Below are positions 47,529 to 63,735 of a stretch of 64,000 nucleotides of DNA, in pieces (position 1 is the first letter of the stretch; each line of letters begins with the position of its first letter). Made by a program: the position numbers and the translations under genes. Source of the stretch: Tubiluchus corallicola (lineage: Eukaryota > Priapulida > Priapulimorpha > Priapulimorphida > Tubiluchidae); NCBI GenBank assembly GCA_030141605.1, contig JAQGDQ010000030.1:186001-250000 (forward strand), written 5' to 3'. The notes beneath the pieces were generated by a model. It was not told the origin of the DNA. It did no database searches and was given only the letters and a program-made list of their open reading frames with translations.

Positions 47529-48500
47529 ATGACAAATTCAATCATGAAAACTGCGCTTTCGTTCTCTCTGTTACTAAACATGATTGGACTACTGACAAGA
47601 GCTGTATCACAGAGCTCTGCTCTGGCTTCAGAAATTTTCCAGATTTGCCAAGGTAACCACTGTGAAGCAAGCAATCGCATGACTATCTATCCATCCAAAG
47701 ATAATTTTTATATTCTTGTGCTGGCACAACTGCACGAACCAGGAGATACTCCATTCAAGTGCGGTCAAAAACTTTCAAAGACAGTTATTCAAAACGTAGA
47801 AGCGGTGTTCTTTAGCATGGACCAGGTAAACAGCAATGCTACTTTACTTCACGGTATCGATATTGGGGCAATAGTCGTCGATACATGTGGTCAACCAGAA
47901 ATCGCATCCAGAATTGTCCTAGAACTCCTTAGTGGTGATGTGACAATAAGGACAAAGTTCGCTAATCAGACTGTCGGTCTGAACCAAATTGCTGCAGTTG
48001 TCGATCTGGCAGCGGCAGGTGGAAGTCAAGCACCGGCATCTCTGTCGGAGCTTGGCGTCACTGCTATTAATTTGAACTCTTATTCTGATCCAACACGTTC
48101 TGCATTCACACTTCAGTTGGCCACAAATGTAAAAGAACAAGCGGAAATGTTTGGAGTTCTTCTCCGAACATTCCGTTACACGTTTGTCTCTGTTGTTTAC
48201 AGCGAAAGTCTTCAAGGTCAAGCTAGTAACCTGGCTTTTAAAATTGAGGCAGAGAAGCAGGGCATCTGCATAGCCATGTCCATTCCTGTACCAACGTATG
48301 TGGATTATAATAAATATATGGAAAGGATTTTACTGTTTTTGAAGCGTCGTCAAGGAGATGGAGCTCGAGCTCTGATATTGTGGCTGGAAGTTGACCAGAT
48401 CCACGAATTTTTACTTGCCATGAAAAGACTACGTGTCAATGGTATTTTGGGATCACAAGATTTTATTTTGCTATTACCTACAACGTGGGGAAATATGCAG
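47529..48500 (+). CDS. receptor exon 1: signal peptide and most of VFT1
   Basis: ATG at 47529 is the first Met after an in-frame TAG. It runs 324 codons to ATGCAG|GTATGT, phase 0. A hydrophobic signal peptide (S-F-S-L-L-L-N-M-I-G-L-L) is followed by C-Q-G-N-H-C, then P-F-K-C-G (residues 75-79) and I-V-V-D-T-C (115-120), the disulphide and lobe-1 marks of mGluR VFTs. Lobe 2 is seen in F-R-Y-T-F-V-S-V-V-Y-S-E and E-K-Q-G-I-C-I-A. Where mGluR1 has its S-A-T-S glutamate-binding loop this exon has N-L-N-S-Y-S, and the hinge G-S-D motif reads L-L-P-T-T-W. Confidence 0.93.

Positions 48501-63735: not shown

What the first reader, a model, noticed from the sequence alone, without database searches (positions are those of the whole stretch)
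47529..63735. Class C GPCR with two complete tandem Venus-flytrap ligand-binding domains
One exon (51,664-52,342) reads without interruption from the last strand of VFT1 through a cysteine linker into the C-G and D-S-C motifs of VFT2, and 16 phase-consistent exons give one 1,444-residue receptor. Class C receptors of the mGluR, CaSR, taste and GABA-B groups have one VFT per subunit and gain two by dimerising. A subunit with two could hold a dimer-like ligand head in one chain, bind two ligands, or form four-lobed tandem dimers. I know of no described receptor of this layout in the mGluR group, but I cannot search.
Basis: partly seen in the sequence, partly recalled or inferred. Interest (0 to 1): 0.92.

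Follow-up and report, generated by a model that had tools for sequence, protein, structure and literature searches.

The report
Receptor with two stacked flytrap domains
This animal gene appears to encode a cell-surface receptor of the glutamate-receptor class that carries two ligand-trapping domains in a row instead of the usual one, and at least one related gene in the same genome shares the layout.

Summary
Sixteen exons (47529-63735, +), GT/AG at 15 of 15 introns, phases matching, give 1,444 residues: signal peptide, VFT1, three-cysteine linker, VFT2, three-cysteine linker, 7TM, tail. Exon 5 runs without a stop from the last strand of VFT1 into lobe 1 of VFT2. Pfam finds two ANF_receptor stretches and one 7tm_3. 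Among solved structures both VFTs match mGluR5 best and the 7TM mGluR3. New here: the nine-cysteine domain of mGluRs is missing after both VFTs; most alpha-amino-acid contacts are lost in both; the genome holds a second double-VFT gene (C1055, 7TM 42% identical) and a probable third (C984). An intron shared by VFT1 and VFT2, absent from seven of seven ordinary paralogues checked, favours internal tandem duplication; trees leave it open. Eight searches of an open-access library showed no class C receptor of this layout; eukaryotic protein databases could not be searched. I call it a new variant of a known kind, probably a dimer with four flytraps. Ligand, assembly and expression are untested; structure prediction never ran (queue full at ten attempts).

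The parts
47529..48500 (+). exon 1: signal peptide, VFT1 lobe 1 and most of lobe 2 (residues 1-324)
   Evidence: ANF_receptor; hydrophobic start
49837..50026 (+). exon 2: VFT1
50600..50725 (+). exon 3: VFT1 (weak donor GTTTCC)
51098..51282 (+). exon 4: VFT1
51664..52342 (+). exon 5, junction exon: last VFT1 strand, three-cysteine linker CVQSCDVC (residues 525-532), VFT2 lobe 1
54637..54897 (+). exon 6: VFT2
55193..55430 (+). exon 7: VFT2
55914..56073 (+). exon 8: VFT2
56351..56479 (+). exon 9: VFT2
56905..57033 (+). exon 10: last VFT2 strand and three-cysteine linker CQRNECDQC (residues 1012-1020)
57741..57930 (+). exon 11: stalk and start of 7TM
58414..58557 (+). exon 12: 7TM
60171..60330 (+). 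exon 13: 7TM
61688..61905 (+). exon 14: 7TM
62461..62573 (+). exon 15: end of 7TM
63295..63735 (+). exon 16: cytoplasmic tail with YDGGSQF, stop codon

Best explanation
A class C GPCR derived from an mGluR-like receptor in which the VFT plus a shortened three-cysteine linker was tandemly duplicated within the gene, while the nine-cysteine domain was lost. Proposed working: the chain dimerises like other class C receptors, giving a head of four VFTs; the membrane-proximal VFT2, joined to TM1 by a stalk of about 25 residues, drives the 7TM directly, as in GABA-B receptors; the distal VFT1 binds the ligand or tunes VFT2 allosterically. Shown: gene structure, two VFTs by homology, complete 7TM by homology, missing nine-cysteine domain, a second double-VFT gene and a probable third. 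Inferred: origin by internal duplication, dimerisation, division of labour, a ligand other than glutamate, expression.
For: Gene model; two ANF_receptor stretches and 7tm_3; mGluR5 is the best solved match of both VFTs (E 3.4e-32, 1.6e-38) and mGluR3 of the 7TM (1e-17). NCD3G is found in 2 of 2 ordinary paralogues scanned (C25, C156) but not in this protein nor in the C1055 7TM exon. C1055 has the same order: VFT1, CSSYCEEC, P/E-rich linker, VFT2, CLKITCKSC, 7TM, with a GTAAGT donor and TTTTCAG acceptor in phase 0-0 between the modules. VFT2 pairs with C1055 VFT2 (93/92, 96/93) and the 7TMs pair (93/92, 42% identity). An intron directly before the last VFT strand lies in both VFTs of the window gene and, judged by acceptor-like sites, in both of C1055; 7 of 7 ordinary genes checked read through there. 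Seven of seven structural cysteine positions checked are kept in both VFTs (labels recalled). Of five residues contacting an alpha-amino acid (labels recalled), C1055 VFT1 keeps 5, which suggests sensing by the distal domain in that member.
Against: No transcript, protein or structure. Window VFT1 is very divergent and weakly placed (55/53; 30/43). The tree disfavours window VFT1 and VFT2 as direct sisters (p-AU 0.078) and does not unite all six modules (p-AU 0.109, not rejected). C1055 VFT1 matches human mGluR5 (108 bits) far better than window VFT1 (34 bits). By my reading, one of four VFT1 introns coincides with a VFT2 intron. Each window VFT keeps only 1 of 5 amino-acid contacts, so neither may bind an amino acid. 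R78 is missing also in the six ordinary paralogues aligned, so its loss is not special to this family.
Confidence: 0.5

Rival explanations
1. Gene fusion: an upstream single-VFT receptor gene lost its 7TM and was joined to a neighbouring VFT-7TM gene, so VFT1 and VFT2 come from different receptors.
For: VFT1 and VFT2 are only about 24% identical; direct sisterhood is disfavoured (p-AU 0.078); C1055 VFT1 is nearer mGluR5 than window VFT1; the genome has many class C genes (99 7tm_3 matches, a lower bound).
Against: Shared intron before the last strand and a three-cysteine linker after both modules of both genes, unlike the ordinary paralogues checked.
Confidence: 0.25
2. The window receptor is a non-sensing partner: both VFTs have lost ligand binding and the chain pairs with another receptor such as C1055, as GABA-B2 pairs with GABA-B1.
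For: 1 of 5 amino-acid contacts kept in each VFT, against 5 of 5 in C1055 VFT1; precedent of GABA-B division of labour (passage of PMC9138782).
Against: Ordinary single-VFT paralogues here also keep only 2 to 4 of 5 contacts, so loss may mean another ligand; no co-expression data.
Confidence: 0.2
3. Annotation chimaera: two transcripts, one ending after VFT1, never make one chain.
For: No RNA evidence; the exon 3 donor is weak.
Against: The junction lies inside one open exon (0 of 2000 shuffles reach its open length); a VFT2 transcript would lack a signal peptide; C1055 repeats the layout with a clean splice.
Confidence: 0.05

Closest known systems
Metabotropic glutamate receptors (mGluR5 for the VFTs, mGluR3 for the 7TM)
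   Same: VFT and 7TM homology; structural cysteines kept.
   Different: Two VFTs per chain; no nine-cysteine domain; most amino-acid contacts lost.
GABA-B receptors
   Same: VFT joined to the 7TM without NCD3G (GABA-B layout read in passages of PMC12716839).
   Different: None of the 48 chains listed for the 7TM is a GABA-B receptor; one VFT per chain.
Class IV mGluRs and atypical flatworm glutamate-like receptors
   Same: mGluR relatives with changed glutamate-site residues (passages of PMC6307864; PMC3261222).
   Different: No double VFT in the passages seen; [quoted passage not shown]
Trypanosoma brucei receptor adenylate cyclases
   Same: Predicted two VFT domains in one extracellular region (figure legend of PMC6027212).
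   Different: Single-pass cyclases, not GPCRs.
BvgS-type sensor kinases and the GlnPQ importer
   Same: Tandem flytrap or substrate-binding domains in one chain (abstract starts in listings; outline only of PMC8025302).
   Different: Bacterial, no 7TM.

Membership tests
Class C GPCR | 7tm_3 domain over the curated cut-off | tested here: met
   109.3 bits against 33.5, residues 1047-1289
Class C GPCR | Extracellular VFT | tested here: met
   Two ANF_receptor stretches
mGluR | One VFT per subunit | tested here: not met
   Two VFTs, junction inside exon 5
mGluR | Nine-cysteine domain between VFT and 7TM | tested here: not met
   No NCD3G at E up to 1; controls C25 45.4 bits and C156 51.8 bits
mGluR | Glutamate-contacting residues | tested here: not met
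   1 of 5 alpha-amino-acid contacts in each VFT; R78 is N in both; K409 aligns with R in VFT1, Y in VFT2 (labels partly recalled)
mGluR | Obligate dimer | not testable with these tools
   Structure prediction never ran; needs experiment
GABA-B receptor | Closest sequence kinship to GABA-B | tested here: not met
   No GABA-B chain among the 48 listed for the 7TM; for the VFTs 60 of 83 and 60 of 108 matches were shown and none is GABA-B
Tandem-VFT receptor group in this genome | VFT, three-cysteine linker, VFT, 7TM in more than one gene | tested here: met
   C1055; C984 probable: its VFT2 lobe 1 piece and first exon have no ANF match, its second linker lacks the three-cysteine pattern, and splicing was not worked out

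The most novel reading that the evidence does not exclude
An undescribed class C receptor group of bilaterian animals whose subunits each carry two VFTs and no nine-cysteine domain, working as four-flytrap heads in which a distal amino-acid sensor (site intact in C1055 VFT1) controls a proximal VFT that gates the 7TM directly.
Probability: 0.35. Interest if true: 0.85.

Novelty: new variant of a known kind. Interest (0 to 1): 0.62.

Why it matters
Class C receptors are taught as one flytrap per chain that gain cooperativity by pairing chains, with a rigid cysteine-rich rod passing the signal to the membrane. A chain with two flytraps and no rod would test directly how much of activation depends on dimer geometry, on the rod, and on having two ligand sites, and would offer a natural design for a receptor that could integrate two signals.

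Tried and rejected
Rejected: two adjacent genes read as one (junction inside exon 5). Rejected: a nine-cysteine exon hidden in the introns; listing of cysteine-rich open stretches in the introns showed no CRD-like stretch by eye, and none was listed for intron 10, between VFT2 and the 7TM. Rejected as proof of DNA-level duplication: a 16 of 17 base match between exon 3 and intron 7 at the homologous place, because two other exon-intron pairs score the same 26.3 bits. Corrected: a note says that only C390 and C1055 show the same ANF stretch twice upstream of a 7TM. Rechecking, C2252 (+) also shows overlapping stretches upstream of one 7TM, but about 29 kb apart, and was not followed; C1027 and C1809 show them over 400 kb apart; C984's second VFT was not in that table at all. 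The table is a lower bound (150 of 191 and 115 of 230 candidates scored). Led nowhere: COX1 (no match), Rfam on the window (0 matches), Pfam on six other open frames of the window (5 without a match, one weak match below cut-off). Trees do not settle duplication against fusion: the VFT1 set and the VFT2 set are each not rejected as clades (p-AU 0.1 and 0.358).

Full report
What is there. The window is C390:186001-250000 of an unnamed 343.5 Mb genome in 2344 contigs. Of its 118 homeodomain matches I fetched 12; by recall they include Hox1, 2, 3 and 4-like and three central Hox-like genes, so it is a bilaterian animal. The phylum is not settled.

The gene. Sixteen exons on the + strand, 47529-63735, with GT/AG at 15 of 15 introns and consistent phases, give 1,444 residues. 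The frame used is free of internal stops in all 16 exons and each of the other 32 exon frames has at least one stop. Codon-position GC is 0.489, 0.381 and 0.417 against 0.331 in the introns. Exon 5 alone carries the join between the flytraps; 0 of 2000 shuffles of it reach an open length of 225 codons.

The domains. Pfam finds ANF_receptor twice and 7tm_3 once. VFT1 alone scores 1.1e-23 and VFT2 alone 3.7e-30. By phmmer against solved structures VFT1 matches mGluR5 (3.4e-32, query 75-500), VFT2 mGluR5 (1.6e-38, query 8-484) and the 7TM mGluR3 (1e-17). VFT1 and VFT2 match each other at 24% identity over 375 columns. Hydropathy shows a signal-peptide-like start and a cluster of hydrophobic segments in the 7TM region.

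No nine-cysteine domain. Two ordinary receptors of the same genome give NCD3G at 45.4 and 51.8 bits, while this protein and the C1055 7TM exon give none at E up to 1. In its place stand CVQSCDVC after VFT1 and CQRNECDQC after VFT2; from the last of these cysteines to TM1 there are 25 residues.

Ligand site. Of five positions that contact an alpha-amino acid in mGluRs (S165, T188, D208, Y236, D318 in mGluR1 numbering, recalled) VFT1 keeps S165 and VFT2 keeps D318. C1055 VFT1 keeps 5 of 5, C1055 VFT2 1, C984 VFT1 2, C984 VFT2 0, C1710 1, and the six ordinary genes aligned keep 2 to 4. R78 is N in both window VFTs, but it is also missing in the six ordinary genes, so these may generally prefer other ligands. 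Seven of seven structural cysteine positions are kept in both window VFTs. VFT2 has two further cysteines (616, 628) in the stretch where mGluRs carry their interchain cysteine (recalled); VFT1 has none there.

Relatives. In the own genome the nearest locus is C1055, minus strand. It encodes VFT1 (its first part falls in a run of N), CSSYCEEC, a P/E-rich linker, VFT2, CLKITCKSC, 7TM and a tail. The two halves are joined by a GTAAGT donor and a TTTTCAG acceptor, phase 0 on both sides. Both tails share the heptapeptide YDGGSQF, once in the window and twice in C1055. C984 is a probable third: two open frames match ANF_receptor over overlapping profile ranges (29-252 and 95-247) upstream of a 7TM exon (1.9e-35), and a junction exon carries SSRCKTFTCQC followed by VFT2-like motifs; but the pieces for the first exon and for VFT2 lobe 1 have no ANF match and splicing was not worked out. 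C1710 has one VFT with its own signal peptide and a 7TM, separated by a run of N, so its layout is open. C25, C1730, C1422, C2297 and C2085 have one VFT followed by a full cysteine-rich stretch.

Origin. VFT2 and the 7TM of the window and C1055 pair well (96/93 and 93/92). VFT1 is poorly placed. An intron just before the last VFT strand is certain in both VFTs of the window gene (stops precede it), likely in both of C1055, and absent in 7 of 7 ordinary genes checked. That favours tandem duplication of one unit, but the tree disfavours window VFT1 and VFT2 as direct sisters (p-AU 0.078), so the duplication would be older than the split of these genes, or the modules were fused.

How it may work. 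Inference only: a class C dimer with four VFTs, VFT2 acting on the 7TM without a cysteine rod as in GABA-B receptors, VFT1 as distal sensor or modulator. GABA-B layout and division of labour were read in passages (PMC12716839; PMC9138782).

Literature. Eight searches of the open-access library listed no class C receptor with two VFTs in one chain; several searches held more papers than were listed (20 of 30, 30 of 89, 10 of 22). Passages of six papers were read and the outline of one. Two VFTs in one chain are predicted for trypanosome receptor cyclases. No eukaryotic protein database was available, so the layout may exist there unremarked.

Noticed in passing
window 55529-55626: In intron 7 an acceptor-like site is followed by a frame beginning RLSEQ and ending in a stop, like the start of exon 3 (NNRLSEQ) at the homologous place of VFT1; a relic or alternative last exon that would give a soluble double VFT. 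DNA match 16 of 17, tied with chance-level matches.
   Followed up: partly
window 63295-63735 and C1055 tail: The cytoplasmic tails share YDGGSQF (once in the window, twice in C1055), a possible docking motif.
   Followed up: partly
C2252, + strand, about 545967-588701: Overlapping ANF_receptor stretches lie about 29 kb apart upstream of one 7TM; could be a further double-VFT gene or two genes.
   Followed up: no
C1055, between VFT2 and the 7TM exon: A long in-frame minisatellite coding GTFTYRK-like repeats lies in the presumed intron.
   Followed up: no
window 44826-45446: Open frames that look, by recall, like the end of a non-LTR retrotransposon reverse transcriptase; Pfam gave one weak match below cut-off for the first and none for the second.
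   Followed up: partly
window about 49400-49800 and 53725-54050: Long simple repeats (AT-rich pentamer and AG dinucleotide) inside introns 1 and 5.
   Followed up: no
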